Assembly (NCBI GenBank): GCA_008330645.1
Contig: VLTN01000026.1
Location: 248,001-312,000, forward strand
DNA: 64,000 bases
Direction: 5' to 3'
Source of the DNA: Cafeteria roenbergensis
Lineage: Eukaryota > Sar > Bigyra > Bicosoecida > Cafeteriaceae
Made by a program: the position numbers and the translations under genes. The notes beneath the pieces were generated by a model. It saw only the letters and a list, made by a program, of their open reading frames with translations, was not told the DNA's origin and did no database searches. Below, piece by piece: positions 365-62,941 of the stretch (positions within the stretch are counted from its first letter, which is position 1; each line of letters starts with the position of its first letter).

Positions 365-3300
365 ATGGCGCTGGGTGTCGGGTCTGCCGTCGCCACGCAC
401 GACGGCTCCATCACAGGTGTGAGTTGGCGCGAAGTTGCTGCATCGGCCCCCCTGCGCGCGCGGCAGCAGCTCGCTGCCAGGGCAAGCCCGCCAACAGCGC
501 CCGCGAGGCGTCGCTCCGGAGCGGCACGCACGGCCAATGAGGGGGTATGCCCATCTCGTGCGTCCTGGGCGGTGCGCATCGCTTCCAGGCGGCGCCGTCA
601 GCCGCTGGGACTGGGGCCGGCAAGCGCAGCAACCAGACCCCCTCGCTCGAGCCCCTGCGTTCTGAGGCCTGCCGTGGCGACCAACCACGGGCGCCGCATA
701 CTTCCCAAGCCGGGCACGCGCTGCCAGTACCCGCGGTCGCTCTTCCCATCCCGCGTCTGCCCTGCGGCTGCCGCGCGATCACGCAGGACATTCGATGGAT
801 CGGTGCGCTGCCGGAGCTTGGACCCGGCGACTGGGCCGCCATCGAGTCGGCGGAGCCCCCGCGCCTTCCCAGGACAAAGCGAACGCAGTACACGGCCCTC
901 TTTGACGGCGACTATGCCGGGTCCCGCCTCTTCAGGCCGCGCGCAGGTCACGTTGCACACCTGGTGCCCACGTCCGACACCGTGGCTTTGCTTGCGTCTC
1001 CGACCACGAGGAGGCCTGCCGACAGGGCCAGGGCATCGCATTTCCTTGCCCACCAGCCGCCTGAGCACGCGCCAGTGAGCACAGACTTCCCTCCCGGGCA
1101 CCCTGGTGTTGGCGCAAGCGAAGGCCGCCGTTCGCCACAACACGACTGGCACCTGCTTCGCGCAGCCGATGCGCGGCCCGGAGCGGCCCACGGGGCTCGC
1201 TTGCCGCTGGAACACGCGCCACCAGGCGCACCCCGCCACGACCCGCACGGGCGGCGCCACCCGCCCCAGCCGCCGACGAGGGAGGCGGCCGGCAGCGCCC
1301 GAGGAGCCGCCGCCCGCTCCGGAGCGCTTCCGACCGCAGCCACGCCGCCTTCGCCCCCGTCCCCCCGTCAACGGAACCCAAGACGTCACCAGTCGCTCAG
1401 CCACAGCCACTCGTCGCTGGGCGATGCGTCCACGTCTCGAGACGGCGTCTGGGCCGACCCCGTGCTGGGAGCGGCGCCGGACGAGGCGGGGTCCGCTCCT
1501 GGCTGGCCATCGCTCCGCCCAGAGGGCTACTCGACGCCCTCCCCCCCGCAAAAGTTGCCTCCAAGGCCTACGCATGGGGCTGGTTCCTCGCAGCAGGCGC
1601 ATTCAAGACGCGAGCGCCTCCCAGCCTCGACAGGCATCTCGGGCGAGGCGGCCCCCGGCCGCAGGCTCTCCCCTTCCCCCACAGGATCCCACGGAAGGAA
1701 GGGGTCTCCCTACGAACAGCAGGAGCCGCGCCCGCCCGCCCGCCCCTCGCCCGTCGACGACCGGACTGCGGACCTCGACGCGCAAGCGGCCGCCCGCCGC
1801 GCGAGGCTCGCCGCTGCCAGAGCCGCCAGGAAGGCCCTGGATGTGCCGCAGGCGGCGTTTGGGGGCGACATTGACCCCCTCAGGGCAGTCCTCTCCGCTG
1901 TTTCGTCGCCGGCAGACAATGCTGCCGCTGCCCGCACCCAGCAGGCCGCACCGCCCGTGGGCCCTGCGAGCGCTGGGGAGAGCGCCGCCTCTGCCGTGCC
2001 GCCCGGTGACACCCGTAGGTCCCAATCCACTGCCGACGCTGGCGGGGCGTCATCGCCGCCGCACACGGAAGACCGCGGCCGTGCCAACGACAGCGACGGG
2101 CGGCTCACAGTGCCCGTGGTGACGCTGACCCATGCCGCGGTGCCCGTGTCCAGACGGCTCGGGGGCGTGGCCGCATTCGGCGTTGACCCCTCATGGGCTG
2201 GCGCGGCGCTTTCGGCGCTTCGCTCCTCAGCGCCCTCCGCCAATGCCGCTCAAGGCGGCGCCTCCGCCGCCGCAGGCCAGCCTGCTCCCGACGCCAGCAG
2301 CACCGCCGCAGCCACGGAGGGCCGCCCCCTCAAGGCTCGGTCTCCCAGTCCCGATCGGCAGAGCCAGCAGTCCGAGTCCGCGGAAGGCACTCAGTCCGGA
2401 TCACGGGGTGGCTCGACCCCGGAGTACTTGACCTCGCACAAGTACCCGCTCACCAAGGAGGCAGCGGTAGCCGCAGCACGGCGCTCCCACCAGGCGCTCT
2501 GGGCTGCGGCTAGCGCCCGGTCAGCCGAGGGCCGCAAGCTGCGGGCCGAGGCCGTGCTGGCTGAGCTGCAGGAGGCGTCCCCCGTGGCGCTCTCGGCTGC
2601 AGCTTCGCTTCTGGACACGTCGGCAATGGCGGAACTGCTAACGGCCGCCAAGTGGTTCGTTCGCAGCGACGCCGCACCGCAAAGCGCGGAGCGGACAGAA
2701 TCAACACGTGCATCCAGCCAGGGGAGCGCCGGTGCGGAGAGCGGCGACCAATCGGCCGGTGCGGAGCGCGGCGGCCAATCGGCCGGGGTAGAGGGCGGCT
2801 CGCCGGAGCACGCGGCCAGCGACGCCGCAGCGCTCCAGGCGGTGCTGGACCGCCTGGTGGCGCAGGCTGCCGATGCTACACGCGGCCTATCGTCCTCCAG
2901 CGAGGCCTCCGGGCCTGGCCAGCGGCGTCGCAGGAACGAATCGTCGCTCGGCCTGTTTGCAGCCAGGCTGGTGGCCGGAGCCGCGGCCCGGCTTGCGACG
3001 GTGGCTGCATCGGAGGGCGGTGGCGCGTCGCTCGCCAGGCGGATCATGGCGCCCCCTGCGCCCAGCCAGCAACGGGGCGGGGCGGACCACGGCAGCGAGA
3101 CTCGACTTCTCGCCAACGGTCCCGGACACACTCTCGCGACGAATGCCTGCCCAGGCGGGGGGGCCTCGCAGGAAGTTGCGGCGCTGTGGCTGCGGGACAC
3201 CACGACCCCGCTTGTCAAGCTGGCCGACGGCATGGTCGAGGCCTCGGCGGCGTTCGGTCCCGGCCCGGGCTTGCGCGCCGATAGTGCGCGCAGCCCTGTC

Positions 3301-5811
3301 AGACAGGGGGGCTTTAGCACCGCGCGCAAAGACGATGCCGGGCAAGGTGCTGCGAGCTCGCCGGGGCCGGCCACGGTCGCCGCGTCTCTGGCGGCAGCGA
3401 GGCGGGCAGCGGCAGGCGCGGACGGCTCCGGGTCCTCCGACTACCAGCAGCTGCTTCATCACCGCATCCAAGAGGCGGAACAGCGCTCTGCCGACATGCT
3501 GCGCCGGCTCTCGGACGTGCTTGGCCAGCGAGATGTCAGCGGGACGTTGCCTGCACCAGACCCAGCAGGCTCGTCACCCGGCGGCGGACCAACGTTGGGC
3601 GCGAAATCACCGCGTCGCGCACCCCCTCCGCCGCCTCCGGTCGAGGCTTCTCGGCCAGCTGGCGCTGCTGCGGGGCGCGATTCTGCCGCAGACTCTGCCG
3701 CCGCATCGCCGCCAGCCGCCGATGCCGCACACGGGTCTGCAGCGCAAGCGTCGGGAGGTGCCCTCGGCTCCCCTCAAGCGCCTGGCAGCAGCAGCAGCAG
3801 CAGCGAGGGGTCAGCCGCGGCTGCTGGGGCCCCTGCTCAGCGGCGAGCTGTGACGCCTCCCCGGCCGGCGCGGCATTGCTCACCGGCGTCGACCTCGACG
3901 GAGCATGGCAGGGCTGTCCAGGCGGATCAGCCCGACTCTTTCGCACGTGAAGAGCCAAGAGGAGGAGGGGGAGGAGCACCCGGCTTGCCCCCTCAGGCAG
4001 TGCCACTGGCCGCGCGCGCCGAGGAATGGCGCCATGAAGCTGCGGCGTCCGGTGGCTCCCCCATCGACTCTCCCTCCACCCAGCCGGATTCCAAGAGCTG
4101 GGACGCCGTGTTCGAGTCCGCCTCGCGAAAGCCGCAGCCAGCCCACCTGCGTCATTACCAGCGCCCGCACCAGCAGCAACGGAGCAGCCCTGCTCATCCC
4201 ACCGCGAGCGCTGACCACGTCGAGACCTTCTCCCCCGCGGCGGCTCGACGCCTCTTCGTCGGTCTTCCTTCGCACCAGTCGATTGTTCCCCCGGCAAGCT
4301 CCTGGTACGACACGAGAGCGCTGACACAGACGGCTCTTTCCGCCTCACTGCACGGCCCGCCAGCTCGGTCGCCATGCTCGCCGTCTGCCAGCGCAGCTGC
4401 CTGTGAAGCTGGCCGCTCGTATCCTGACCTCCACAAGGAACTGGCCTTACCTTCGAGCCTGGCTTGTTCCCCAGAGCAGCCAGCAGCGCGCCCTCCGTCG
4501 CCCCCTCCGGCGCGTGAGGTGGTTGCGGACGTGCCAATTCCAGCAGGAACCCCGCCGGTGCGCACGTCGCTGCCTGACGCCGCCCCGACGCAGCAGCTTG
4601 GGCAGCGCCCGCTTTCGCCAGGCAACGGCAAGGCAACGAGGCCGTGGCCCAGCGTGTCCGCCGCCACCGCGGACGATGGCAGCGAGCCGGCGCCGCCTCA
4701 GCCAGAGCCCGTGCCTGCCAGTCGCATTCCTGTGCCCGCAGCCTCGCCGACGCGGAGGCCCGCAGTGGGGGAGCCGCGCTCCGCCCACCCCGGAGCTCGA
4801 GCTGTGTCTCCATCACGCGGCGGGGCTGCTCCCCGAGCTGGCCATCCACCCGAAGCCGCGCCGCGCGACCTGCACACCGGTGCGCTCACTGCAACGTCGC
4901 CAAGCAGGCCGCCAGCCCCGCCCAGGCCCGGTCTTGAGACTGAGGGGGGCAGGGTGCGTAGGGACCCGACAAATGCGTCGCCTGCACACTCGCCACGGTT
5001 GGGGGGGCAGCAGAGGGGAAGCAACCCCGCATCGCCGCAGATGCAGGCGGGACTTGAAGACTCGCCGATCCGCGCGGCGCGTCGGGCCGGACCTTCCAGC
5101 GTCGGTGCAAGCGCACGGCAAGGGCACGAGCGTTCGCCTCCTTCAGGGGCAGCTGAACGCAGGGTTGCTTCTTCGCCAGCACGGGCGCCGCCTTCGCCGT
5201 ACTCGGCTGCAATCGCGCGCGCCGTCGGCGACGACGGAATTTCCCTGCGCGAGTCAGCAGAAACTGACCCACGGGCGGCGGCACCTCGATTCGCCGCACC
5301 TGCCGCGGATGCCGGAACATCACCAGCGCGCTCTCATCGGTCGGCGTTGCCACGGGGCGCCCATGGGCGCGCCGGCCAGGCCGCGCACAGCCCCGGTGGG
5401 CGCAGGGCGCAGCGCGGCGAGCTCGGCGCGTCTCGCGAAGGTCGTGCCGCCTCTCGAGACACGTCTCCGAGGAGTGTTGCGAGGTCCAGGACGCGGGACA
5501 GCGCGCCCTCGCCCGAGAGGGCTGCGCGGCCAGGGTTTCGAGCGGCTGGCCAAAGCCGTCGGCCCGCTGCAAAGCCGGCCGGTGCTCGGCAGCAAGCCGG
5601 CGAGCAGATGGTTGTCGAGGAGCGCCGGAGCGCCGGCCAAAGCGTGTCACCTGTCGCGACGACTTCTCAGGCCCGGGCCGGGCCCAGGACCCAGTCGGGC
5701 GCCCCCGCGGGAAAGCACTCTGCGCCCTTGGCTGGCCGGCCTCAAGCGAGACTGCGGCCCGGGTTCTTCAGTCATGGTGCGGGGCTTGCGGGGGGCGGCT
5801 TGCTGGGCTAG
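365..5811 (+). CDS. CAP-Gly-like protein with a long low-complexity tail
   Basis: Proposed exons are 365-418, 787-1074 and 1594-5811. The first intron (419-786) joins in phase 0 with GTGAGT and CACGCAG. The second (1075-1593) also fits the local GTGAG/GCAG rule, but the frame is open through it, so the product is 1,519 aa if it is removed or 1,692 aa if not. The first splice builds a divergent CAP-Gly fold: GDIRWIG (residues 18-24), GDWAAIE (32-38) and FDGDYAGSRLF (57-67). The canonical GKNDG groove motif is degenerate (LFDG). CAP-Gly domains bind the C-terminal EEY/F of tubulin and EB proteins, so a microtubule role is inferred. The rest is Ala/Ser/Pro/Arg-rich, with a helical block near residues 390-470, a short coiled-coil-like stretch near 728-757 and a poly-Ser run. 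The domain call is moderately sure; the 5' exons are less so. Confidence 0.55.
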
Positions 5812-6475: not shown

Positions 6476-9400
6476 ATGGATGTCGGAGAGACCCTGCGGG
6501 AGTCATCGCTGCACCGCGTCGCCTTCCGCTGCTGCCAGGGCAGCAGCAAGGAGACTCGCGTCGGATGCTGCTGGGTTCCATCGAGCAGGAATGCTGACGC
6601 CGTCCTCGCGACGTTGGCTCTCCTGCACGCCGTCTGCACCGTGGCCATGCTGGCAATCGGCATCTTGAGCCCAGGCACCATTCCCAGCGCGGTGCCCTTT
6701 CGCTTCGATGCAGGCTCGGTTTGCAGGAACGCCAGCTCGAGCGCAGGCCAAGCCGAAGGCCCCCCCAACCCCTTCGCTCACAACGAAATGGGGCGCGTCC
6801 TCATCGGGCACGCATTCGTCATCTTCGGCATGGCTGGGTTTCTGCTGGCAACGCTCCTGCTGCCGCGTCCAGAGCGAGCCGAAGACTCGGGGTTGAGCGC
6901 GGAGCATTGGGACAGCTACTTGTGGGCATACCGGTGGGCCATTTTGCTGCCCATCGGGTGCATCTGCATCGCTGGGACGCCAATGGCCTTGGGCGGTGAC
7001 CTTCTCTTCGTTGACCCCGAAGACGGCTGCCCCGCCGGCTTCGGCATAGGAAGCACGTTGACACTGTCCCACCTCGCGACGTTTTACACGTCGGCAATCA
7101 CCATGCTGCTCGCCGGCAGGCAAGACGGCAACATCGGGCTGCTCTGGGCCATCACTTCGGGCCTCTCTTCCACCAGCGGCGTGCTTGCCAACATCATCAC
7201 GGTCGTGGGCCCGGGCCTCGGCCAGCCTGTCACGTTCTTTGCGCAAGTCGCGGACTTCGGACCCACCGCCGCCATGACGTTGATCCTGCTTGGTGGCACG
7301 CAGCTTGTCTCCTTCCCACTTTCGTGCTGGTGGTGTTCTCCGCCTTGCCGGCGCGTAAGGCGTGGGAGGGTTGGAGCGAGGCCCTCGCAAGAGCCACGCA
7401 CCGCATCCAGGTCTGCGAGAGGATCGCAACGGCAACTCCCTCGGCTGGCGCTGAGTCTCGTGCAAGTTGAGAGCCTCGGCCCCCTTCCCGCCAAGCACGA
7501 GCCAGCGGACTCGAGGCCTGAGCTGGCGCCTTGCTGCAGGGTGTGGCTACCGAGCTCGCCCGTGCTGGCAACGACATTCGTGGCCGCTCTTCGGCTCAGC
7601 TTGCTGGCTTGGGGCTTGGACAAGGGCCGCGTGCGGCCTGGAACCCACGCCCTCGGAGTGTCCGCAATCATTTGCGCAGGGGTGATTCCCATTACGCTTC
7701 TGATGACGGCCGCCTCTCTTCAGCGTGCGATCGTCGCGCAGACGCAGGCAGCCACCCACGCCAAGTCCGTTGGCCTGAACCGGCTTATTGGCTACGTCAG
7801 CCACGAGGCGCGAAACCCCATCTCCGCCGCAATGCTTGGCGCGGAGAACGCCGACCTGGACCTGGCCTTGGCAGTTCGCCGCCTCGACGCGGCTCTCGCC
7901 CACATGGCCTCGGTGCAGGGCCACGATGGCAGAGAGGAGATCGACTCGGTGCAACAGAGCACGCCAAACGCACAGCAGGCACTGCGGAAGCGGCCAGCCA
8001 GGCCTCCAGCGGCTGCGCGCCACGCATCACTGCCTTCCAGCGCGTGGCGCACAGTTCAGTCAGCTCGGGCTTCACACGGGGCACAAGGTCCTGAGGTGCA
8101 GCCCGTGTCGGGCGCGGCCACGGCCTGCACACTTGAACGCAGAGCCATCTCGACGGCGGCGGCAAAGCAGCGCGAAGCTTTGGAGTCTGTTCACGCTGCT
8201 GTGTCTGATATCGGGTCCGTGATGGCCGGCCTGGCCAGTGCCCGCGATATCCTGTCCGACACCCTGGGCCTCCAAAAGGTCGCCTTGGCGCAAACGGAGG
8301 CCGTCGCCGTCGAGTGGCGCTCGCTCGACGACGTCATGAAGCCGCTCCGCCTCATGTACGGGGGCGAGAAGCCCCGGCAGGGCGGCGCGTCGCACGTGTC
8401 GGTGCGGTTCGCCTGGGACGCCGGGACGCTGGTTCAGCCCGGCGGCGGGGTCGCCGACGCGCGCCCGGAGGTGGCGCTGAGCGCGACGAGCGTGGGGCAG
8501 GTGCTGACGAACTTTTGCTCCAACGCGGTGAAGTTCGCTACGTCGCGCGTGGACGTCGAGGTCACCATCGCGACGCAGTTTCACGAGCCCTTGGTTGGCC
8601 CGGATGCTTGCGCTGCATCGGGGCCCCGGCCCGGACGTCACGGCCCGGGAAGCGCGACCGTGGCGCCGCTCCCCTGTGACCAAGCCGGGCTCGGCGGTCG
8701 GCAGGTGCCAGTGGCGGCTCAACGCCCACTCGGAAGCACGCCAGCGAGTGGTGGTGCACAGGCCGTCAGCCAGCCTCCGCCGGCCCCAGTCACCGCAAAC
8801 CCCGTGGCAGCGGCCCTGGCAGCAGCCGCACCCACTGATTCGAGTGCTGCCGACCTGGCAGCCTTCCCAGGGATGAATAGGAGGCTTGTTCCCATGACTG
8901 AGTCACGCGTGCTCGTAGCTGGCCAAGTCGCGAGCTCCGTGGTGCAGAGCGCCCCCGCCGTGCTCGTGCTGGTGGTGCGCGACGACGGGGCGGGCGTGCC
9001 GCCCGAGCACCGATCCTCCCTCTTCGCCTCCTTCCAGCAGCTCGCGTCCTCCAGCCTCTCCCAGCGCATGGCGGGCACGGGGCTGGGGCTGGCCTTCTGC
9101 CGCGCGGTGGCGTCGCTGATGGGGGGCGCAGTCGGCCACCGCGACCGCCTGGACGGGCAGCAGGGTTCGGAGTTCGTGATGTGGGTGCCGGTGCGGGTGC
9201 GGGCGCCATCCCTGGCATTGGACACCGACAGCACGTCTGCTCAAGCCGCCGAGCTCACGGAACTCGCAAGGCCGTCTATTGCTCTGACGGAGAGCGAAGC
9301 GGGCGTGGTGATTGGGCCCCAGACTTCGGCCGGCGAGCGCGCGGGGGGACGCAATTTGTCCAGCGGGCGGCCCTCCTGGCTTCGCCGTCTTACCAGCGGC

Positions 9401-11224
9401 CGCCGCGAGGATTCATCTCGCAGTACAGAGCGACAAGGAGCATTTCGGGCCGATGCGAAACCGGCAGCGCGAGCTGTGGTGAGTCAGTCGTCTGGAGCAG
9501 GCTCGCTCAACTACGCCGTCCGCACTGACGATGACGGGGTGGAGGTGCCGGACGAGCAGAGCGTGCATTCATCGAACCTTGGAGCGGACGCGCACCGATC
9601 GGACTCGCGGTGTGCTGCCCTTGGCTATACCGAGGCGCGGTGGGGACCTGTGCCAAGCAGCCCTGCGCTCACCGGCCAATCTGGTTCCCTTGGCGATCGG
9701 GAACCGAGAGACGGCGCGCTGTGCTTTCCCGGGGTTCGCCGAGCTGTCGGCGGGTCGCCGCTGTCAACGACTGGGGCGCCCATCGGAGCCGAGTTGGGCG
9801 CGGGATTGAGCAGGGAGCGCTCGCTCCACGCTGGCCACGTCGTGGCGACCAGAAGCAACACAGTCATCGGCTTGGATGGCCTCTTGACTGGCCGCTCCCA
9901 GTCTCCGCACTCGCGCCACGGCGGTACTCACCGAGGGCTTGGCTCGCCTTCGACAGCCACCGAAGCCAACCCGCGCTCGTCGGGTGCTCCACCCCTCCGC
10001 TTCTTGTCCTCCTCCAAAAGCGGCTCGCGTCATCGCTCGTCCCAAGGGAGCCCCGCCGACACCCCTACCGCAAGCGGCTTCGAGCAAGCGATCGGCAATG
10101 GGAGCCGCGACGTGGTGGAGGACGCGACCGTGGCTGAAGCGCTGCACCCCAGCCCGGCAGGCTCCACGCCGGAGGGCGCCGCCAGCCCTGCGGGACGGAG
10201 TCGAGTCGTTTCAGCCTGCATGACAGTCAGGTCCAAGTCGAGGGCTCAGAGGGACGTCCGAAGGGTGGCGCGCGCCAAAGCTCGGGCTCAACACTCCAAC
10301 TCCTCCCTTGCTGCTCAGCGAGTGCCTGACGAAGGTGCAACTTGGGGAAGCATCCAGAGCATGCCTTCAACGGCGTTGCCGTCTTCAGGGGCGCTGACGA
10401 CGCCCTCGACGCCGGCTCGATCGCTTTCCTCGTCCGGCGGCTGCGGTGCTGCTGCAGACTCGTTGCTTGGCGAATTCGGGGACCTTGGCAGCCGCGCTGC
10501 GTGCCTCGTTGTGGAGGACAACGACTCCCAGAGGCTTGGCCTGTGCCGGCTTCTCAGGCGTCTCGGTCTCGAGTGCAGCCAGGCGGCAGACGGCCAAGCA
10601 GGCTTGGACAAGCTAGTCGAGCTGTGCAGCTCAAGCGTGCTCGGCGCGAACGGCGGTGCGATTGAGTACGACACGTCTCCGCCGCTTGGCGATGCGGCCG
10701 AATCCAGGACACTCGCCCAGTCTGTTCCCCCCTCAGCGCCCAGGAGGGCAGTTTTGCCGGCCAGCTCTCCAGACCAAGCACCCGCGTTGCGAAGGAGCAG
10801 TAGTGCGATGGCTCTGACGTCGGTGTTTGGCAGCAACGACGGGAAGTTGCCGTCCCCGAGTGCGGCCGAGCGCGAAGGCAGGGGCGGGGCAGAAGGGCTC
10901 CCAGGCATGGAAGCCATCGAGGGCGAGAGGCGGCCACGCGGAATCGCTTCGGCTGCGCGGCAGCGCCGGCGCCGGCTCATCGTGTGGACCGACTGCCGCA
11001 TGCCCCGACTCAGCGGCCCAGAGCTGGTCGCGGCGGCGAGCACCTTGCCATCAGTTCTCTCGCACGGCCAAGTGACCTTCGTGGGCACCACCGGCTCGGC
11101 TGAGGACGAGGGCGCCTTCTCGCTTGCGGGCGCCAAGTTCGTGCTTGCCAAGCCGCTGGAATTCGCCTCTGTCGTTTCAGTTCTTCGGCAAATCCTCCGG
11201 GATGACGCCCACCCAGCTTCCTGA
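6476..11224 (+). CDS. Membrane-bound hybrid histidine kinase 1
   Basis: This 1,582-aa protein is a two-component sensor kinase fused to a receiver. The start ATG has a favourable context (GCGAAATGG). Residues 40-415 hold about eight hydrophobic segments and no known ligand-binding domain. The H-box reads YVSHEARNP, with phospho-acceptor H443. The ATPase domain has its N-box (NFCSNAVKF, N679/N683), G1 (DDGAGV, from D836), an F-box (LFASFQQL) and G2 (GTGLGLAF, from G867). The receiver starts at CLVVED (1343-1348) and has phospho-acceptor D1506 (TDCRMP) and K1559 (AKPL), so it looks catalytically complete. Disordered insertions interrupt the DHp region, the ATPase domain (N-box to G1, about 126 aa) and the receiver (about 115 aa before beta-3). 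It is a tandem paralogue of the next gene and shares two near-identical DNA tracts with it. The signal sensed is unknown. Confidence 0.9.
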   Translation: MDVGETLRESSLHRVAFRCCQGSSKETRVGCCWVPSSRNADAVLATLALLHAVCTVAMLAIGILSPGTIPSAVPFRFDAGSVCRNASSSAGQAEGPPNPFAHNEMGRVLIGHAFVIFGMAGFLLATLLLPRPERAEDSGLSAEHWDSYLWAYRWAILLPIGCICIAGTPMALGGDLLFVDPEDGCPAGFGIGSTLTLSHLATFYTSAITMLLAGRQDGNIGLLWAITSGLSSTSGVLANIITVVGPGLGQPVTFFAQVADFGPTAAMTLILLGGTQLVSFPLSCWWCSPPCRRVRRGRVGARPSQEPRTASRSARGSQRQLPRLALSLVQVESLGPLPAKHEPADSRPELAPCCRVWLPSSPVLATTFVAALRLSLLAWGLDKGRVRPGTHALGVSAIICAGVIPITLLMTAASLQRAIVAQTQAATHAKSVGLNRLIGYVSHEARNPISAAMLGAENADLDLALAVRRLDAALAHMASVQGHDGREEIDSVQQSTPNAQQALRKRPARPPAAARHASLPSSAWRTVQSARASHGAQGPEVQPVSGAATACTLERRAISTAAAKQREALESVHAAVSDIGSVMAGLASARDILSDTLGLQKVALAQTEAVAVEWRSLDDVMKPLRLMYGGEKPRQGGASHVSVRFAWDAGTLVQPGGGVADARPEVALSATSVGQVLTNFCSNAVKFATSRVDVEVTIATQFHEPLVGPDACAASGPRPGRHGPGSATVAPLPCDQAGLGGRQVPVAAQRPLGSTPASGGAQAVSQPPPAPVTANPVAAALAAAAPTDSSAADLAAFPGMNRRLVPMTESRVLVAGQVASSVVQSAPAVLVLVVRDDGAGVPPEHRSSLFASFQQLASSSLSQRMAGTGLGLAFCRAVASLMGGAVGHRDRLDGQQGSEFVMWVPVRVRAPSLALDTDSTSAQAAELTELARPSIALTESEAGVVIGPQTSAGERAGGRNLSSGRPSWLRRLTSGRREDSSRSTERQGAFRADAKPAARAVVSQSSGAGSLNYAVRTDDDGVEVPDEQSVHSSNLGADAHRSDSRCAALGYTEARWGPVPSSPALTGQSGSLGDREPRDGALCFPGVRRAVGGSPLSTTGAPIGAELGAGLSRERSLHAGHVVATRSNTVIGLDGLLTGRSQSPHSRHGGTHRGLGSPSTATEANPRSSGAPPLRFLSSSKSGSRHRSSQGSPADTPTASGFEQAIGNGSRDVVEDATVAEALHPSPAGSTPEGAASPAGRSRVVSACMTVRSKSRAQRDVRRVARAKARAQHSNSSLAAQRVPDEGATWGSIQSMPSTALPSSGALTTPSTPARSLSSSGGCGAAADSLLGEFGDLGSRAACLVVEDNDSQRLGLCRLLRRLGLECSQAADGQAGLDKLVELCSSSVLGANGGAIEYDTSPPLGDAAESRTLAQSVPPSAPRRAVLPASSPDQAPALRRSSSAMALTSVFGSNDGKLPSPSAAEREGRGGAEGLPGMEAIEGERRPRGIASAARQRRRRLIVWTDCRMPRLSGPELVAAASTLPSVLSHGQVTFVGTTGSAEDEGAFSLAGAKFVLAKPLEFASVVSVLRQILRDDAHPAS
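8224..8571 (+). repeat. Conversion-like tract A, copy in kinase 1
   Basis: These 348 bp match 14317-14664 at 347 positions. The one difference (8339 A versus 14432 G) changes K622 to E784. The tract encodes the second DHp helix through the N-box of the ATPase domain. Identity stops abruptly at both ends. Confidence 0.95.
8950..9207 (+). repeat. Conversion-like tract B, copy in kinase 1
   Basis: These 258 bp match 15625-15882 at 256 positions. Both differences (9112 and 9130) are synonymous. The tract encodes the G1, F and G2 boxes of the ATPase domain. The 378 bp between tracts A and B have no counterpart in kinase 2. Confidence 0.95.
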
Positions 11225-12082
11225 GGCGCAATGAAAGCCATTGCGGGACCAGCAGCAGGTCACATTTGTGCGCTCTCGGCTGTTTGGTTCGTGTGTGCCA
11301 CAGCGCCCTCTCAAACAAGGGGCTCGTGTCGTCACAATGCTTGCGAGTCGCCGGTGATCACCCCCCTCCCCACCTTTGCTGCCCCGTCCATCGCCCACGG
11401 ACCTGGCCTCGCGCACCGCCAAAGCGAGCGCCGTCTTGTGTCCGGGCAATCGAGCCTCGGTGGAGCCGCTTGCGTGTGTGCTCGGGAAGCGTCGCACCAG
11501 CGTGCGCAGCCTGACGGACGGTGCATTCAGGGGTTGCCTGCCTGCCAGCCAGTCCAGAATGCCCCATCGCCAGGCTCGCTCGCGATGCGCAACCTGGGCC
11601 CACATAGCAGGCACGCCAGGGACTGCCGCCCGGCTTTGCCGGCTGCGAGCGTTGCGCTTGAACTGCCTTACCGAGTTGCAGGCAAGCTCCTCTGTCTCGC
11701 TGAGTTGTTGTGAGGGAACAACCCGCCAATACCTCTGACGCTCCGGCCACTCGCGCCCCAGACACCTGGCGGAGGGGCGGCACCCGGTGACGCTGGCACG
11801 TGAGCCGCGTGCTCATCGGCTACGCGCGCGCCTCCTCCGGACCCCCTGCAAGCGGCTTGGGAGGGAGTCGACGCAGGGAGCTGCCAGGCTTGCGCAGAAG
11901 GCGCCACAGCCACCCGCGCAGCTCCCCGAGGACAAGAGAAGCCTTCGCGCTCCCGGCGCGACTGAGTTCCAGCGCGCTCGCAGGTCATCACCGGACGTGG
12001 GGCAAGTCTGCCTGGCGCCCCTTGCTGGTCGCGGGGCCTGGGAGTCGGCGCTGGTCGCTTTGGCCGACACAAGCAGCAAGGG
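11225..12082. other. Intergenic region between the tandem kinases
   Basis: This 858-bp stretch separates the two plus-strand kinases. GTGAG strings occur near 11708 and 11800, but no coding exon could be joined to kinase 2 with confidence. It presumably holds the kinase 1 3' UTR and the kinase 2 promoter. Confidence 0.4.
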
Positions 12083-15000
12083 ATGCCAGTCAGCCCCAGG
12101 TCAGACAGCGCATCGGAGCGGCGGCCCCAGACTGCGGACGAGTCACCAGACCAAGGCGTGCTCAGCTTTGTGCTGTGCAGCTCGCCTCGGCAGTCCTATG
12201 TGGCCCGGCAGGCGGGGCGAGTCGGGGGCGTTTGCTGGGCAGGCGCGGACGCCCAGCTCGACCGCGCCGCGGCAATTGGCGCAGCCATCGCGGTCGGCCT
12301 GACTGTGGCGACGACAGTCCTTGGAATCTTGGTGCCGGAGACATCGCCGGGGGTTGCGGCGGCGCCGTACGCGGATGGGCTGCCGTGCGGCAGCCAGCGG
12401 CTGAGCGGGTCAGATTCTTCCGAAGGCGGAAACGCTGCCGTCGCCGCCAGCGAGCAGCTGGAATCCTCAATGCTCGTCATCAGCACCGGGTTCATAGGAA
12501 TGGGCATGCTCGGGTTTCTGCTCGCCGTGCTGCTGCTCCCGGGGGCGGCAAGGGCGGCCTGCCGGCCAGCGAGTGCCAACGGACGTGTCAACTACATCTG
12601 GGCCATGCGCTGGTCGCTCATCGTGCCTTCAGGGAGTCTGGTCATCGTGGCTGCGTTCTTGGGCTTGCAAGCCGACCTTGTGGCGGTGCAGACACCCGGC
12701 GGCTGCGACAAGGAGTTTGCGCTCGGCCCGCCCATGAGCTGGCTTCGGCTCCTCAACTTCGTCTCTGGCTCGCTTCTCATGATGTTTGCCGCCCGCGCGC
12801 GCGGAAAGGTCGCCCGCGTGTGGCCAGTCGTGGCACTCGGGCTCTTCGGGGCTACGTCCGTCCAATGCTTGGCGCAGTTTCTGCCAACGCCGTTGGCGTT
12901 CACGAGTACGATAGGCTTGGTCACGGTGTCGATGGGTTTGCTGGCCATTGCGTCTATTGGCCTCCTGCTGACGACTCGCTGGACTCCAACCCGCATCCAG
13001 CTTCCCTGCATCCCCGTCGCAAGTGGACCGAGGGGCTACGCATGCCGAGGCTGCCCTACTAGGGCGGCCACGGCAAGAGCCGCGGGCAGGCGCCGATCGA
13101 CCCGGGCTGTCGCTCCGATGCCGCCGCAGCACAAGCCGGGCATGCAGGCCGAAGCCCCCAAAGTGCTCGCCCAGCAACATGTGCGGCTCTTGTCCATCAT
13201 GGCGCTGGGCCAGCTGCCCGAGGCGGCGGGCGATGTTGCCGGAGGAGGGAGCGAGCGCCGCCGAAGCAATCAGTCCCAGAGCTACGCTTGCACGATCCGA
13301 GTGCCGGTGCGCCCGGTCATCGGGATGCTGAGCATCACGGTGACGCAGATTGCATACGTGTTTTCGACGCTTCTGACCCATCTCAAATACAACGGCACCG
13401 TTTCCCTTGTCTTTGCGGGCATCTTTGCGACTCTCATCGTCCCAGCCATGCTGGTCACGGCAGCTGCCGCCCACCAGCGGGCTGCCATGCTCAAGACTCA
13501 GGCTGCCTTGGAAGCCAAAGCCAGCGGGCTGAACCGACTGATTAGCTACGTAAGCCACGAGGCGCGCAACCCCGTGTCTGCAGCGATGCTTGGGGCTGAC
13601 AACGCAACGCTGGACCTGGAAGATGCTGCCATGGCCATCGACCGGCTGCGGCGCCGCACTGCAGCGCACAGCGTTGCGGCAACGCCGCCACTGAGAGGGC
13701 AGGGCGGGGGTTCGGAGGTCCGCGCAAGGTCGAGGTCCGGCAGCCTGATGGCTGCGCCGAGCAACCTCCAGACTGCCGTCGAGGGGCTGCCGCAGCTGCC
13801 CCGGCAAGGAGTCTTGCGCACAGAGAGTGAGGGACAAGGCCGCAAGCGCCGGACACCGCGACCAGGAGGCTGGGACTCGTCGGACTTGACGGACTCGGCG
13901 CAGCCCCTGCACGTGGCGTCTGGAGAGGCCAGCCCACGCGTGGCAAAGAGCCGCGATAGCGCGTCGCGGCAGGACACTTCAAGGGCGGAACGCCGCCCTT
14001 CGATCACGGCCGAGGAGGCAGCTGCGGCTGCAGGGCCCGCCGCGCCGGATCTGCCTCTGGCGTCGATGCAGCTACGGCGGTCGCCCAGCAGAGTGACGCA
14101 TGGCGTGTCGCGGCATTCAGTGGTCGGCCCAGCATCGTCAGCCGCTGCGCCATCCCCGGCCCAGCGGCGTCCAAGCACCGCTTCGACCTCTAGTCGCTCG
14201 GAGAGCTTGCACAGCGGGGAGGGACAGCCCGAAGCGCCGGGCACCGTGGCAGGCTCGGCCACGGAGTCCGCAGCGGACGCGATTCTGTCCGCCGCTTCGG
14301 AGCTGGCCTCCGTGAGGGCCGGCCTGGCCAGTGCCCGCGATATCCTGTCCGACACCCTGGGCCTCCAAAAGGTCGCCTTGGCGCAAACGGAGGCCGTCGC
14401 CGTCGAGTGGCGCTCGCTCGACGACGTCATGGAGCCGCTCCGCCTCATGTACGGGGGCGAGAAGCCCCGGCAGGGCGGCGCGTCGCACGTGTCGGTGCGG
14501 TTCGCCTGGGACGCCGGGACGCTGGTTCAGCCCGGCGGCGGGGTCGCCGACGCGCGCCCGGAGGTGGCGCTGAGCGCGACGAGCGTGGGGCAGGTGCTGA
14601 CGAACTTTTGCTCCAACGCGGTGAAGTTCGCTACGTCGCGCGTGGACGTCGAGGTCACCATCGCCGCGCTGCCCAGCGGCTACACGCTGCCAACCGCGGC
14701 ATCTCGCTCTGCTGCGGCGCTCGGCGGCGCGGCAGCTGCCGCTGCCTCCGAGAGCAGGGCGGCCTCCAATCCCAGTCGCAGGCAGCACAGGCCGCAGCGT
14801 AGCTCAGCATGGGAGGACATCGGGAGCTGGGTGGCGCCAACTGCCGGCCGGTCGGCCGCAACGCAGTCCGCCGTCATGAGCAAACGCACCCTGACGACAG
14901 TCATGGACAGCCACCGGCCCGCCGCAACAGACGGCGGGTCGTCCATGTACCCAGGGGAGCCCGCGTCATTGGTGTTCGGCGGCGCAGGGGCGGGACCTGA

Positions 15001-18000
15001 CGGCGCTGCTGCAGCCTCGGCTGAGCCTCGATCTCCCGGTGCAACTGGCGCCGACGCCGCCGCGCAGCTGGGAGTCAGCACCCGCTCCAAGGCGAGCCAC
15101 CCTCAGCTGTCTCCGTCCCAGGCAACGGCCGTCGCCGCCAGCCGACGGGCGCTCTCGGTTGGCCCGGCAGGTGCAGATGGGGCGCCTGGAGTGCCCGTTC
15201 ACGTGAAGCCGCTGCTGGCGGTGCCTGAAGAGCGAAGAGGGGGGGGGTCCGGCGGTGCGGACGAATCGTCGCGAACAGGCGGCAATCCGGAGCAGACTCC
15301 CGCGTCAGTGCCGCCCACTTCCAGGGGTGATCGGGCCCGCGCTGGCCGCGGCAGCAGCGCTGCCCCTACCCGCCTGCTGGTTGAGCTGACCTCTGGTCCC
15401 GACAGCTCCGCCGACGACAGCACGGAGGCAGGGCAGTTTCACCCAGGCGCGTCGTCTCCAACTGCCGCCGCTGCGTCCGCCTCCGGAGCGGCGGCAGGTG
15501 CTATTCTGCCTCGAATCGACACGGGCAGCAGCGAGCCAAGGGAGGGACGTCGACGTCCTGCCGCCTCCTCCCCCACTGCTACTGCCGACCGGAGCGCCCC
15601 GAGAGAGTGCTCTCCGTGCCCCTCCGCCCCCGCCGTGCTCGTGCTGGTGGTGCGCGACGACGGGGCGGGCGTGCCGCCCGAGCACCGATCCTCCCTCTTC
15701 GCCTCCTTCCAGCAGCTCGCGTCCTCCAGCCTCTCCCAGCGCATGGCGGGCACGGGGCTGGGGCTGGCCTTCTGCCGCGCGGTGGCATCGCTGATGGGGG
15801 GCGCGGTCGGCCACCGCGACCGCCTGGACGGGCAGCAGGGTTCGGAGTTCGTGATGTGGGTGCCGGTGCGGGTGCGGGCGCCGCAGTTGAGCCGTGCCAT
15901 CGGAGCCTCCGCCACGGGAAGGCACCCAGGCCATAGCCCAAGCCACAACCGCGACGGCGGGCAGCAGTGGGGTGCCTTGGCCGGCGGCACGCATCACAGC
16001 CGCGCAGGCGGAGGCGTGTCCGAAGCGACGCCCGACCGGGGGCTGAGCCGGTCGGGCGCTGGAACGATCGGCCACCAGCTGTCCGAGCAAGTGCGCCGGC
16101 ACCTGGAGAAGCAGCCGACGCTGCTTGGCGGATCGCGGGACCACGAAGAGCTGCTCGAGCGCCGACGGCTCGGGCGCAGCGGGGGAAGCAGCGGCGAGCC
16201 GGGCGGTTCCGCAATCTACCGGCCCGCCGCCGCCGCCGCCGCCGCCGCTGCCGCCTCCCCAGGCGACAGCCTTGCGCCGCTTGTCTCCCGAGACCAGCAA
16301 GCAGAGTCCGATGCCTCCCCAGGCCCCGGGGCGCTGGCGATAGGAGCAGGGCCGGCGGGAGCAGCGCTCGCCTCGCCAGCCCGGGCCGGCGTCCAGGCTG
16401 CCCTCTTCAGCAGCCCCTCGGGGCTTGCTGGCCGCTGCAGCCGGCGCGCGTCTGACGTTGCCCGCCACGGCCCCGCGATCTCGGCCTGGGCGAGCGGCTC
16501 AGCCACGTATGCCCGCAGGGACGAGTCCGGCGCGACACGCAGCGGGTCCCCGACTGGCGGAGGAGACGAGCCCTGCTCGGACCCTGCCGAGCTTCCAGCG
16601 GACCGGCAGATCGATCCTGTCTCCTCGGGCCAGAATAGAAGCGCGCGCGCGCGCAATTGCAAGCGTAGCTCGGCAGGAGCCTCGTCCCAGGCAGTGCCCA
16701 ATACTGCCAGCCTGGGGCCTCGCGGCTCCGTCGCCGACTCGGCCACGAGCATGCCCGGGGACCCGGCCTTCTCGGGAGACTCTCCCTCAGTGCCGTCGGC
16801 CACGGCGGTGTCCGTAACGGCGTCCCCCTGGAGGTCGTCGGGGCGACAGTTTGCGGCCCTCCCAGAGGAGCCTTCTGGCGAGTCCGACGCTGCCGTGGGG
16901 GACGTCCTCCTTCCGCCCGGCGTGGCCGTTCTCCGGTCGCAGGGCACTTCGGTGGCCGGAGAAACGATGGCTGGGAGCTCGGTCGCGGGGTGGGGGCACT
17001 CCAGCCAGGACATGCGCACTGTGCTGACTGGCTCGGCTGTGGCGCTTGACGCGCAGGGCATGGCCGGGGGAACCCTGGGCGGGGACGAGCGCCTCAGCAG
17101 CAACCGCACCAGCAAACACGAGGAGCGCGCGCCAAGCGAGCTTGCGCCCGACGGTGCTTGCAGCCGCGGGCAAAAGGCCACTGACGGCGCGAGCATGGCC
17201 GGGGAGGGTGCGCGTTCAGCCAAGGCCGCCTCAACAGTGAGGACCACGTCATCCGGAGCCGTCTTCGTTCCTGCCCACAGCGAGCACATGTCGGGCCTGA
17301 CACCTCCCCCGTCGGCCGTGGCAGCCGCTGCAACGAGCGGCCCCACCAGCGGCCCCGAGCGCCAGCCCACGGCGCCGCATTGCCAAGGCGCTGCTGGCGT
17401 GCAGTGCCAGCCCCACCCCCAGCGCCGCGGGTCCGCGGTTGCTGCGAGCATGGCTGCGCATCGCCGCTCCAGCGCCACCAACTCTCGCGCGTCGCTCGCC
17501 AGCCGCTCCAGCGCGGCCCTCCGCGGCTCTGGCCGCTCGGGAAGGGCGTCGTCCATGCTGTCGAACGCCCAGGAGGCGGGGAGCGGGTCGCCGATTCCTT
17601 CGGGCATGGCGTCCGCCCGCTCGGAGCGGGCGCGATCGTCGCGCGCTGAGCGCGACGCCCGGCGGTCGAGGCGCCGGGTCGAGCGGTCGGGCCGAATCCC
17701 CAACAGGCACAGCTCTGCCGGCGATGGGGAGTCCAGCGCTGCGCAGTCGGAGGCCTCGTCGGTCGGAGAGTTCTCCCCGTCGGACGCCAGCGAGGCCGGC
17801 CTCAAGTCCGCCACGGGAGGCGTGCAGGGGCCGGCAGGAGCGCCTTCGGTGGGAGGCGGGGGCGCTAACACCCACCGCAGGCGGCCGCCCATGCTCGCTG
17901 TGGGGAGGCAAGGAGGGTTCCGAATCAAGCAGGACCCCAAGCAGCCGACGTCTGCTCCCGGCCACTGGACGCGCCTCACGTCGTCAGCACACCCCCACGC

Positions 18001-19327
18001 TCCGGGTATTGCTACTGCTGCGGGCGGGGCGCATGCTGCCTCTGCAGCCATCGCTTCCGGGTGCTGCTGCCTCGTGGTGGAGGACGAGGCCTCGCAGCGG
18101 CGAGGGCTCTGCCGCCTGCTCCGCCGCCAGGGCATCCGCGTGGAGGAGGCGGCTGATGGCGTAGATGCTTTGCAGGCGCTGCAGCGGCTGTGCCGGGAGC
18201 TGGCGACCAAGTTCCAGCGCGAGTCGAGGAGGCACCGGCGCTTCTTCGCCGGCGGCAGTGACCCGGGCGTGGTGGGTACGGTGGCCGAGGCGGACGGAGC
18301 GGCTGCGGAGTCGGACGAGGCGCGCTCAGAGTCGACCCAGAGCCGCCCGGGCCGAGCTGGCGCGGGGGGCTCTGGCCTCGCCGTGGCCGCCAGGTCCCCA
18401 GCCAACGGCCCAAGCCCGCCGTCGGCCATGCCAAGCGGCACCCCGCTCCCCAGCAGCCGTGCAACGGCGCGGGGGTCGGACGCCGACGTCACACCGCACT
18501 TCTCCCTCGTGGTCGATGCGGCGTCCATCACGCCCCACAAGGGGGCGATGCAAGGCGTGTCGCTTCGGGGCTCTGAGCGCTCGACAAACGAGTCCGCCGA
18601 CGAGGCCGCCGCCGTCGAGCCGGCCGCCGGCGACGGAATGGGAACGCCCGTGGCTGTGGGCCAGGGCCCTCCGATGGCCGGGTCCCCCCCTGCGGAACGC
18701 GCCCAGCCGGTGAGCCGTGGGCAGAGCCAGCCACTCATGCTGTCGCGCGCCGCCACGGGCGACTCTGCGCCGGCCACCACCTCTGCCCAGCACAGGCTTG
18801 TATTGCTCGCGACAGGCGGCCAGGACGTCGGCGCCGGCGATGGCTTTTTGGATGCGAGCGCCGGCAGGGCGCAGTCGGTCGTTGCTTCGGCCTCCCCGAG
18901 GGGCTTCACGCCGCTGGCTGCTGCGCTGGCCTCCAAGACGCCGTTTGCCAGCCATGGAGTTGCCGGCTCTGGCGCCGCAGGACACGCTGCGGGGCGCAAG
19001 GCCGATCCAGCGGCGTCGTCCAGCTCCAACAGCAGAGCTCGAGGCATCCTGGCCGACGTTGGCACCGTCGCTCCAGTCACAGTCCCCCCTCGAGTGGTGG
19101 TGTTCTCGGACTGCAACATGCCTCGGATGGACGGCCCCGGGCTCGTGCTGGCGGCAGCTTCGGATCCCGACGTGCGTGCTCTGGGCCGCGTGTTCTTCGT
19201 TGGCGTCACGGGCACGCCGGAGGACGAGAAGCGATTCAGGGACGCCGGCGCCCGCATCGTCATCAGCAAGCCAATCGGCAGTTCTGCTGTCAAAGCGGCC
19301 CTGCACTCGGCGCTCAGCGCGCTGTGA
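12083..19327 (+). CDS. Membrane-bound hybrid histidine kinase 2
   Basis: This 2,414-aa paralogue of kinase 1 keeps the same order: an N-terminal multi-pass sensor (about residues 65-480, with recognisable counterparts of the kinase 1 helices, such as GMLGFLLAVLLLPGAARA), an H-box (YVSHEARNP, H492), an N-box (N841/N845), G1 (from D1192), G2 (from G1223) and a receiver. The receiver has ED at 2000-2001, D2343 (SDCNMPRMDG) and K2396 (SKPI). Its disordered insertions are larger: about 320 aa between N-box and G1, about 700 aa between ATPase and receiver, and about 290 aa inside the receiver before beta-3. It also carries an Ala run encoded by a GCC repeat at 16226-16255. A 1,057-codon frame lies antisense to its 3' half and is a composition artefact. 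The start ATG follows a GGG-rich stretch; no upstream exon was identified. Confidence 0.9.
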   Translation: MPVSPRSDSASERRPQTADESPDQGVLSFVLCSSPRQSYVARQAGRVGGVCWAGADAQLDRAAAIGAAIAVGLTVATTVLGILVPETSPGVAAAPYADGLPCGSQRLSGSDSSEGGNAAVAASEQLESSMLVISTGFIGMGMLGFLLAVLLLPGAARAACRPASANGRVNYIWAMRWSLIVPSGSLVIVAAFLGLQADLVAVQTPGGCDKEFALGPPMSWLRLLNFVSGSLLMMFAARARGKVARVWPVVALGLFGATSVQCLAQFLPTPLAFTSTIGLVTVSMGLLAIASIGLLLTTRWTPTRIQLPCIPVASGPRGYACRGCPTRAATARAAGRRRSTRAVAPMPPQHKPGMQAEAPKVLAQQHVRLLSIMALGQLPEAAGDVAGGGSERRRSNQSQSYACTIRVPVRPVIGMLSITVTQIAYVFSTLLTHLKYNGTVSLVFAGIFATLIVPAMLVTAAAAHQRAAMLKTQAALEAKASGLNRLISYVSHEARNPVSAAMLGADNATLDLEDAAMAIDRLRRRTAAHSVAATPPLRGQGGGSEVRARSRSGSLMAAPSNLQTAVEGLPQLPRQGVLRTESEGQGRKRRTPRPGGWDSSDLTDSAQPLHVASGEASPRVAKSRDSASRQDTSRAERRPSITAEEAAAAAGPAAPDLPLASMQLRRSPSRVTHGVSRHSVVGPASSAAAPSPAQRRPSTASTSSRSESLHSGEGQPEAPGTVAGSATESAADAILSAASELASVRAGLASARDILSDTLGLQKVALAQTEAVAVEWRSLDDVMEPLRLMYGGEKPRQGGASHVSVRFAWDAGTLVQPGGGVADARPEVALSATSVGQVLTNFCSNAVKFATSRVDVEVTIAALPSGYTLPTAASRSAAALGGAAAAAASESRAASNPSRRQHRPQRSSAWEDIGSWVAPTAGRSAATQSAVMSKRTLTTVMDSHRPAATDGGSSMYPGEPASLVFGGAGAGPDGAAAASAEPRSPGATGADAAAQLGVSTRSKASHPQLSPSQATAVAASRRALSVGPAGADGAPGVPVHVKPLLAVPEERRGGGSGGADESSRTGGNPEQTPASVPPTSRGDRARAGRGSSAAPTRLLVELTSGPDSSADDSTEAGQFHPGASSPTAAAASASGAAAGAILPRIDTGSSEPREGRRRPAASSPTATADRSAPRECSPCPSAPAVLVLVVRDDGAGVPPEHRSSLFASFQQLASSSLSQRMAGTGLGLAFCRAVASLMGGAVGHRDRLDGQQGSEFVMWVPVRVRAPQLSRAIGASATGRHPGHSPSHNRDGGQQWGALAGGTHHSRAGGGVSEATPDRGLSRSGAGTIGHQLSEQVRRHLEKQPTLLGGSRDHEELLERRRLGRSGGSSGEPGGSAIYRPAAAAAAAAAASPGDSLAPLVSRDQQAESDASPGPGALAIGAGPAGAALASPARAGVQAALFSSPSGLAGRCSRRASDVARHGPAISAWASGSATYARRDESGATRSGSPTGGGDEPCSDPAELPADRQIDPVSSGQNRSARARNCKRSSAGASSQAVPNTASLGPRGSVADSATSMPGDPAFSGDSPSVPSATAVSVTASPWRSSGRQFAALPEEPSGESDAAVGDVLLPPGVAVLRSQGTSVAGETMAGSSVAGWGHSSQDMRTVLTGSAVALDAQGMAGGTLGGDERLSSNRTSKHEERAPSELAPDGACSRGQKATDGASMAGEGARSAKAASTVRTTSSGAVFVPAHSEHMSGLTPPPSAVAAAATSGPTSGPERQPTAPHCQGAAGVQCQPHPQRRGSAVAASMAAHRRSSATNSRASLASRSSAALRGSGRSGRASSMLSNAQEAGSGSPIPSGMASARSERARSSRAERDARRSRRRVERSGRIPNRHSSAGDGESSAAQSEASSVGEFSPSDASEAGLKSATGGVQGPAGAPSVGGGGANTHRRRPPMLAVGRQGGFRIKQDPKQPTSAPGHWTRLTSSAHPHAPGIATAAGGAHAASAAIASGCCCLVVEDEASQRRGLCRLLRRQGIRVEEAADGVDALQALQRLCRELATKFQRESRRHRRFFAGGSDPGVVGTVAEADGAAAESDEARSESTQSRPGRAGAGGSGLAVAARSPANGPSPPSAMPSGTPLPSSRATARGSDADVTPHFSLVVDAASITPHKGAMQGVSLRGSERSTNESADEAAAVEPAAGDGMGTPVAVGQGPPMAGSPPAERAQPVSRGQSQPLMLSRAATGDSAPATTSAQHRLVLLATGGQDVGAGDGFLDASAGRAQSVVASASPRGFTPLAAALASKTPFASHGVAGSGAAGHAAGRKADPAASSSSNSRARGILADVGTVAPVTVPPRVVVFSDCNMPRMDGPGLVLAAASDPDVRALGRVFFVGVTGTPEDEKRFRDAGARIVISKPIGSSAVKAALHSALSAL
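14317..14664 (+). repeat. Conversion-like tract A, copy in kinase 2
   Basis: This is the partner of 8224-8571, at 347/348 identity and a constant offset of 6,093 bp. Flanking sequence on both sides is unalignable or clearly diverged. Confidence 0.95.
15625..15882 (+). repeat. Conversion-like tract B, copy in kinase 2
   Basis: This is the partner of 8950-9207, at 256/258 identity. The offset is 6,675 bp, 582 bp more than for tract A, because the linker between the tracts is longer in this gene. Confidence 0.95.
16226..16255 (+). repeat. GCC trinucleotide repeat
   Basis: There are eight uninterrupted GCC units followed by GCT-GCC-GCC. They encode an Ala run in the low-complexity region after the ATPase domain of kinase 2. 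Confidence 0.85.
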
Positions 19328-62493: not shown

Positions 62494-62941
62494 GACCAGC
62501 TGCGGCTTCCGAGCCGCGAGGCTTCCAGTCCAGCCCTCGCCCGGTGGGCCTGGCCTTGGCAGGCGCTCGCCCTGCCTGGAGCGCGCCAATGGGCGGAACG
62601 ACTCGGGCAGCTGACGTCTTGAGTGCCGCGGGCTTCCCTCCTCACGAGACGGACTTTCGATGTCAATCGGGGAGGGGGGCAAAGCGGGTCACAGCGGTCC
62701 GCAGTGATTCGTCAAGTGAACGACGAACCGGGTCGCAAAGTGCAGAGCAGTCACCCCCGCTCCGTCCTGCTCATTTCGGAGCCAAGTCAAGTGAGGGCGC
62801 ACAGCTCGCACGCGTCAGCGGGCGGGCCGTCGCGTGGGGCCTCGGCTTCTGCGTGGTCTTGATTTCAGCCCCTTGGCCCACCGGAGGGCTCCGCGCGTGC
62901 GCTTTCGGGCGTGCGGTCCGTCCACCCAACGCGGCGTCAGC
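62494..62941. promoter_or_regulatory. Divergent region between kinase 3 and TMTC
   Basis: This 448 bp lies between the two start codons. The part from 62494 to 62682 is open in frame with kinase 3 and reads as Ser/Arg/Pro-rich protein-like sequence, so it may be coding if an upstream exon exists. The remainder is the likely two-way promoter. Confidence 0.4.

What the first reader, a model, noticed from the sequence alone, without database searches (positions are those of the whole stretch)
8224..15882. Two near-identical DNA tracts inside otherwise diverged tandem histidine kinases
Tract A (348 bp, one difference) and tract B (258 bp, two synonymous differences) encode the catalytic core of the ATPase domain in both kinases. 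The linker between them differs in length (378 versus 960 bp) and shows no similarity. The nearby H-box region is similar in protein but clearly diverged in DNA. Protein constraint cannot explain identity at silent sites. Repeated gene conversion, or recent exchange limited to these segments, is the simplest explanation. It would homogenise catalysis while sensor and output parts diverge.
Basis: seen in the sequence. Interest (0 to 1): 0.85.

Follow-up and report, generated by a model that had tools for sequence, protein, structure and literature searches.

The report
Tandem kinases swap DNA domain islands
In a single-celled marine flagellate, neighbouring sensor-kinase genes that are otherwise old and diverged appear to overwrite each other's DNA in a few conserved islands, so parts of the genes stay nearly identical while the rest drifts apart.

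Summary
Confirmed: two tandem hybrid histidine kinase genes share tract A (348 bp, 1 difference) and tract B (258 bp, 2 synonymous differences) in otherwise saturated surroundings: 136/138 fourfold sites match inside, 44/125 in aligned blocks outside. The assembly figures fit Cafeteria roenbergensis strain BVI, a stramenopile. Near-identical tracts recur in all 7 same-strand neighbour groups I identified among 40 listed ATPase matches; in C44 only 73 bp with two mismatches. The shared island differs by array: ATPase core alone in C40 b/c; H-box-like block and receiver but not core in C28; receiver in four C64 genes but core in three. In C40 one tract stops inside the ATPase block: 30/30 fourfold sites match before the edge, 5/13 after, and GC3 falls from 0.98 to 0.75. 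This fits repeated ectopic gene conversion between neighbours, mostly confined to homology islands between unalignable low-complexity linkers. GC bias is likely, not proven. A clean, replicated case of a known process.

The parts
6476..11224 (+). HK1, hybrid histidine kinase ORF (1582 aa from this ATG)
   Evidence: Pfam HATPase_c 3.8e-17, Response_reg 1.4e-5 below its curated cut-off
12083..19327 (+). HK2, hybrid histidine kinase ORF (2414 aa)
   Evidence: Pfam HATPase_c 2.7e-16, Response_reg 1.2e-9
8224..8571 (+). tract A in HK1: stretch before and including the N-box half of the ATPase domain (domain reading recalled)
   Evidence: 76/76 fourfold sites equal to HK2; GC3 0.94 over 8216-8571
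14317..14664 (+). tract A in HK2
8950..9207 (+). tract B in HK1: G-box half of the ATPase domain (DDGAG...GTGLGL)
   Evidence: Pfam HATPase_c match lies here; 60/62 fourfold sites equal to HK2; GC3 0.96
15625..15882 (+). tract B in HK2
8572..8949 (+). low-complexity in-frame linker inside the ATPase domain, HK1 (378 bp)
   Evidence: no stop in frame; the two other sense frames have 3 and 4
14665..15624 (+). low-complexity in-frame linker inside the ATPase domain, HK2 (960 bp)
   Evidence: no stop in frame; the two other sense frames have 4 and 6
7740..7865 (+). H-box block of HK1 (YVSHEARNP), aligned with 13494-13619 of HK2; not homogenised
   Evidence: 76% DNA identity; 8/21 fourfold
13494..13619 (+). 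H-box block of HK2; not homogenised

Best explanation
Tandem, same-strand hybrid histidine kinase genes of this protist undergo repeated ectopic (interlocus) gene conversion. Conserved domains form islands of homology separated by long, fast-changing low-complexity linkers that cannot pair. When a break in one gene is repaired from a neighbour roughly 4-13 kb away, copying is mostly confined to one island, so each island is homogenised on its own and the genes become mosaics of near-identical and saturated segments. Repair probably favours G and C, which would raise GC3 in converted islands. Shown: identity confined to islands, discordance between islands of the same genes, one tract edge inside a conserved domain, recurrence in seven neighbour groups, higher GC3 in converted tracts. 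Inferred: break repair as trigger, GC bias as cause, repetition over time, linkers as the barrier.
For: HK1/HK2: 136/138 fourfold sites match inside, 44/125 outside; step plot. C40 b/c: ATPase block 251/251 bases identical, yet H-box 24/28 amino acids with 3/15 fourfold, N-box 2/6, receiver 13/22 and 12/29. C40 a shares only the first 155 bp of that block with b and c: 30/30 fourfold, then 5/13. C64 33k/38k: receiver 98/102 fourfold (two typed stretches, 59 and 85 codons) but ATPase block 37/45, while 38k, 44k and 26k share the block at 97-98%. C28 298k/302k: H-box-like block and receiver 99%, ATPase block 71% (receiver identity by Pfam); 310k/302k: H-box-like block 98.5%, ATPase block 16/41 fourfold. 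C22: N-box, ATPase block and receiver 99.3-99.7%, membrane region 15/30 fourfold. B block, different contigs: 312 pairs, mean fourfold match 0.46, maximum 0.84, against 0.92-1.00 in the homogenised same-contig pairs. B-block GC3: five homogenised arrays 0.89-0.99, 13 other genes 0.63-0.98, Mann-Whitney p = 0.004; B minus rest of ORF p = 0.0005.
Against: No second strain and no reads could be examined, so repetition over time is inferred from differing tracts. Two genes without a listed same-contig partner (C45, C10) also have high B-block GC3 (0.98, 0.95). Low-complexity stretches inside converted tracts are only modestly richer at third positions (307/356 against 1110/1402), so codon selection on conserved residues may explain part of the GC3 effect. 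C6 and C28 302k/306k are near-identical over 2-3 kb and may be recent duplications. Some tracts include low-complexity stretches (C22 and C64 receiver, C6), so linkers are not absolute barriers. Illumina polishing could have erased single differences.
Confidence: 0.9

Rival explanations
1. One recent exchange (conversion or double crossover) made tracts A and B identical; there is no ongoing process.
For: In this pair only 2 of 138 fourfold sites differ, compatible with one recent episode.
Against: A and B are separated by unalignable linkers of different length, so at least two tracts are needed. Seven neighbour groups show tracts with different sets of islands and different identities (100% in C40 b/c, 97-98% in C64, 91.5% in the C22 H-box).
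Confidence: 0.06
2. Assembly or polishing artefact: collapsed or cross-polished repeats.
For: Racon polishing with Illumina reads (PMC6972860, passages) could remove isolated differences between near-identical copies.
Against: The BVI contigs were built by Canu from raw PacBio reads (same passages); the tracts sit between unique flanks; polishing should not turn saturated blocks into identical ones, because each copy's own reads map best (reasoning); a tract edge falls inside a domain; seven groups agree.
Confidence: 0.03
3. Purifying selection at DNA level or extreme codon bias keeps the tracts alike without exchange.
For: GC3 in the homogenised tracts is 0.87-1.00.
Against: Codon usage of the tracts predicts about 50% fourfold matches; the same block on different contigs matches 46% on average; C40 a loses identity about two thirds of the way through the block.
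Confidence: 0.01
4. Selection for a shared catalytic core favours converted alleles, so that conversion is functional coordination of neighbouring kinases.
For: In C26 and C40 b/c only ATPase parts are homogenised.
Against: In C28 298k/302k the ATPase block is the part not shared, and the homogenised H-box-like block reads FVSMRSRGP, without the histidine, in the two C28 genes read. Receiver or H-box is homogenised also in C64 and C22. In C44 a short tract is shared with a copy that lacks the DxGxG motif.
Confidence: 0.13

Closest known systems
Segment-limited gene conversion between neighbouring paralogues (primate opsins, protocadherins, plant receptor-like kinases, rice duplicated segments)
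   Same: Paralogues near-identical in some segments and diverged in others. Opsins: passage in PMC3924837; receptor-like kinases, with an effect of clustering and orientation, and rice domain-encoding sequences being converted more often: passages in PMC3924838. Protocadherins were seen only in a reference list.
   Different: Here islands are separated by long unalignable low-complexity coding linkers, silent sites outside are saturated, and the genes are hybrid histidine kinases of a stramenopile protist.
GC-biased gene conversion in multigene families (mammalian histones, Hsp70)
   Same: Raised GC3 where copies are homogenised; Galtier 2003 and Kudla 2004 seen only as references.
   Different: Here a GC3 step follows a tract edge within one gene, but the evidence is compositional only; in rice and sorghum the link was judged doubtful (PMC3924838, passages).
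Bacterial-type histidine kinases; best solved match 6rh7/3dge/2c2a, sensor histidine kinase (Thermotoga maritima HK853 by recall)
   Same: G-box half of the ATPase domain, phmmer E = 2e-9.
   Different: The ATPase domain is split by low-complexity inserts of 126 or 320 codons (coordinates); no HisKA match in Pfam for HK1/HK2 at E 0.01.

Membership tests
Ectopic gene conversion between tandem paralogues | Abrupt step in silent-site divergence along the gene pair | tested here: met
   136/138 inside, 44/125 outside, p = 1.3e-32; plot
Ectopic gene conversion between tandem paralogues | Discordant relationships of segments of the same genes | tested here: met
   C64 33k/38k receiver 98/102 against ATPase block 37/45; C28 298k/302k
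Ectopic gene conversion between tandem paralogues | Tract edge not explained by loss of homology | tested here: met
   C40 a, edge inside the ATPase block; one clear case
Ectopic gene conversion between tandem paralogues | Paralogues within a strain closer than orthologues between strains | not testable with these tools
   no relatives of this genome are held
GC-biased gene conversion | Raised GC at silent sites in converted tracts | tested here: met
   two genes without a listed partner are also high
GC-biased gene conversion | Excess also where codon selection is weak | tested here: inconclusive
   converted low-complexity stretches 307/356 against 1110/1402; small effect
GC-biased gene conversion | Conversion bias towards G/C measured directly | not testable with these tools
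   needs crosses, lines or polarised strain differences
Hybrid histidine kinase | HATPase_c plus receiver domain | tested here: met
   receiver of HK1 is under the curated cut-off (25.7 against 30.2 bits)
Hybrid histidine kinase | HisKA phospho-acceptor domain | tested here: inconclusive
   no Pfam HisKA match, but a YVSHEARNP block is present; motif reading recalled

The most novel reading that the evidence does not exclude
The low-complexity linkers act as recombination barriers that cut each kinase gene into separately evolving islands, so that in a protist with no known sexual cycle neighbouring kinases exchange single domains, with a GC bias, over long times. This would be a modular form of concerted evolution in which linker growth decides which domains stay shared.
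Probability: 0.35. Interest if true: 0.7.

Novelty: new member of a known kind. Interest (0 to 1): 0.55.

Why it matters
Seven neighbour groups in one genome give sharply bounded tracts next to saturated controls in the same genes. That makes a natural test of how homology length, linkers and GC bias govern interlocus conversion in a diploid protist with no known sexual cycle. It also warns that trees of these kinases built on the ATPase or receiver domain may record conversion rather than descent.

Tried and rejected
Introns as an explanation of the linkers: rejected, since six linker stretches of HK1/HK2 (1,994 codons, bounds set by me) hold no in-frame stop while each other sense frame of each holds 1-8. 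Codon bias: rejected. A genome-wide mobile cassette: no further DNA copy found. A whole-protein search of the genome and an rRNA search gave no answer. Literature: searches returned no paper; others returned 2, 10, 2, 4 and 2 papers, seen as listings only, none with gene conversion of histidine kinases in its title or shown start of abstract; so absence in print is not established. The protocadherin paper was not held. Before the counts 6 of 34 extracted matches were dropped: three failed extraction (C36, C23, C13), one looks pyruvate-dehydrogenase-kinase-like by recall (C40_140k), two align poorly (C20, C12_57k). Six further matches of the 40 were not extracted (C28 298k and 306k, C44 214k and 227k, the window's third kinase, a second piece of C12_57k). 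The between-contig count also left out C141 and C110, near-identical second contigs of C6 and C10 regions. My notebook says that C64 26k lacks the shared receiver; one search shows that it has it (97%), and the report follows. In one search the line marked 'without C6' dropped C64 too, so it covers C22 alone (94/102 against 632/751, p = 0.04). In one search the 13 'other' genes include C28_302k, which has a 97% neighbour in 306k. One search printed 150 of 286 rows.
Full report
What is there. The window lies on contig C26 (460,467 bp) of a 36.3-Mb, 167-contig genome. These figures fit Cafeteria roenbergensis strain BVI (170 contigs, 36,327,047 bp, N50 460,467, 70.1% GC; PMC6972860, passages); [quoted passage not shown] The strain name rests on these figures alone. 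HK1 (6476-11224) and HK2 (12083-19327) are tandem hybrid histidine kinases. The linkers between A and B split the ATPase domain; they are open in frame, so I read them as coding, not as introns, although the genome does have introns (1.67-1.89 per gene, passage).

More than chance. Inside the tracts 136 of 138 fourfold sites match; in four aligned blocks outside (membrane region, H-box region, two receiver parts) 44 of 125 do (p = 1.3e-32). A plot in 40-codon steps shows background values outside the islands. Biased codon usage would make about half of the fourfold sites equal.

Replication. A search with HATPase_c lists 40 matches; 39 of 78 first-look candidates were scored, so the list may be incomplete. 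Among them seven contigs carry same-strand neighbours within 13 kb: C26 (2 genes), C40 (3), C22 (2), C64 (4), C28 (4), C6 (2) and C44 (2). 7 of 7 have at least one near-identical tract. The weakest is C44: 351 bp of each gene were fetched and the tract is 73 bp with two mismatches. C6 and C28 302k/306k are near-identical over 2-3 kb and may be recent duplications.

Mosaic structure. C40 b/c: ATPase block 251 of 251 bases identical, with 3/15 fourfold sites equal in the H-box, 2/6 in the N-box, 13/22 and 12/29 in the receiver. C40 a shares the first 155 bases of the block with both (30/30), then drops to 5/13, with GC3 falling from 0.98 to 0.75. C64 33k shares the receiver with 38k (98/102) but less of the ATPase block (37/45), which 38k, 44k and 26k share at 97-98%; the receiver is shared by all four at 95-98%. 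C28 298k/302k share an H-box-like block and the receiver at 99%, with the ATPase block at 71%; 310k/302k share the H-box-like block at 98.5% but 16/41 fourfold sites in the ATPase block. C22 shares H-box, N-box, ATPase block and receiver, the H-box less exactly (91.5%; 39/40 fourfold in its core), while its membrane region has 15/30. Across contigs, 312 pairs of B blocks match at 46% of fourfold sites on average, at most 84%.

Composition. B-block GC3 is 0.89-0.99 in five homogenised arrays (one value each) and 0.63-0.98 in 13 other genes (p = 0.004); the difference from the rest of the ORF gives p = 0.0005. Homogenised tracts of other domains also lie above the rest of their ORF, by little in some (C64 N-box 0.87 against 0.83). 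The high genes C45 and C10 go against a simple link. Low-complexity stretches inside converted tracts are only slightly richer (0.86 against 0.79). GC-biased conversion is the likeliest reading; codon selection, or GC-rich islands being easier to convert, remain open.

Mechanism. The simplest account is repair of a broken island from the neighbouring gene. Linkers without similarity stop copying in most cases, so A and B must have been converted separately. Shown: island identity, discordance, one in-domain edge, recurrence. Inferred: trigger, direction, bias, timing. In C28 the homogenised H-box-like block lacks the histidine itself (FVSMRSRGP in both genes read), so identity there can hardly serve phosphotransfer through that residue.

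Standing. This is interlocus gene conversion, a well-known process with segment-limited precedents (opsins and receptor-like kinases in passages, protocadherins in a reference list). Its value lies in replication within one genome, saturated internal controls and a GC3 step at a tract edge.

Noticed in passing
L033 and L028 (C28:300693-303923 and 309337-312600): The H-box-like block of both C28 genes read is FVSMRSRGP, while the 7 other extracted ORFs that matched the same search keep VSHE: the phospho-acceptor histidine is replaced by methionine. The array may be of pseudokinases, and the changed block is itself homogenised.
   Followed up: partly
window 53816-62682 (-): A third hybrid histidine kinase: HATPase_c and receiver in one ORF (53816-60367), HisKA (below cut-off) in an overlapping ORF in another frame (59608-62682), suggesting an intron or frameshift. 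It did not match the HK1 tracts in the DNA search.
   Followed up: partly
window 547-5811 (+): A 1754-aa low-complexity ORF just upstream of HK1 with no Pfam match; may be chance in a GC-rich genome.
   Followed up: no
window 41148-41415: Imperfect direct repeats (about 76%) within the span of a CWC25-like splicing-factor ORF.
   Followed up: no
L062 1-351 (C44:227250-227600): A kinase-like ATPase block that lacks the DxGxG motif yet keeps a near-identical 73-bp end shared with its neighbour 12.5 kb away; looks like a degenerate kinase.
   Followed up: partly
L042 9255-9441 and 9784-9970 (C36): A 187-bp exact direct repeat 529 bp apart, some 4 kb from another HATPase match.
   Followed up: no
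L025/L026 and L007/L008: Contigs C110 and C141 look like second alleles of C10 and C6 regions (99.75-99.88% over 3.2 kb) left in the assembly.
   Followed up: partly
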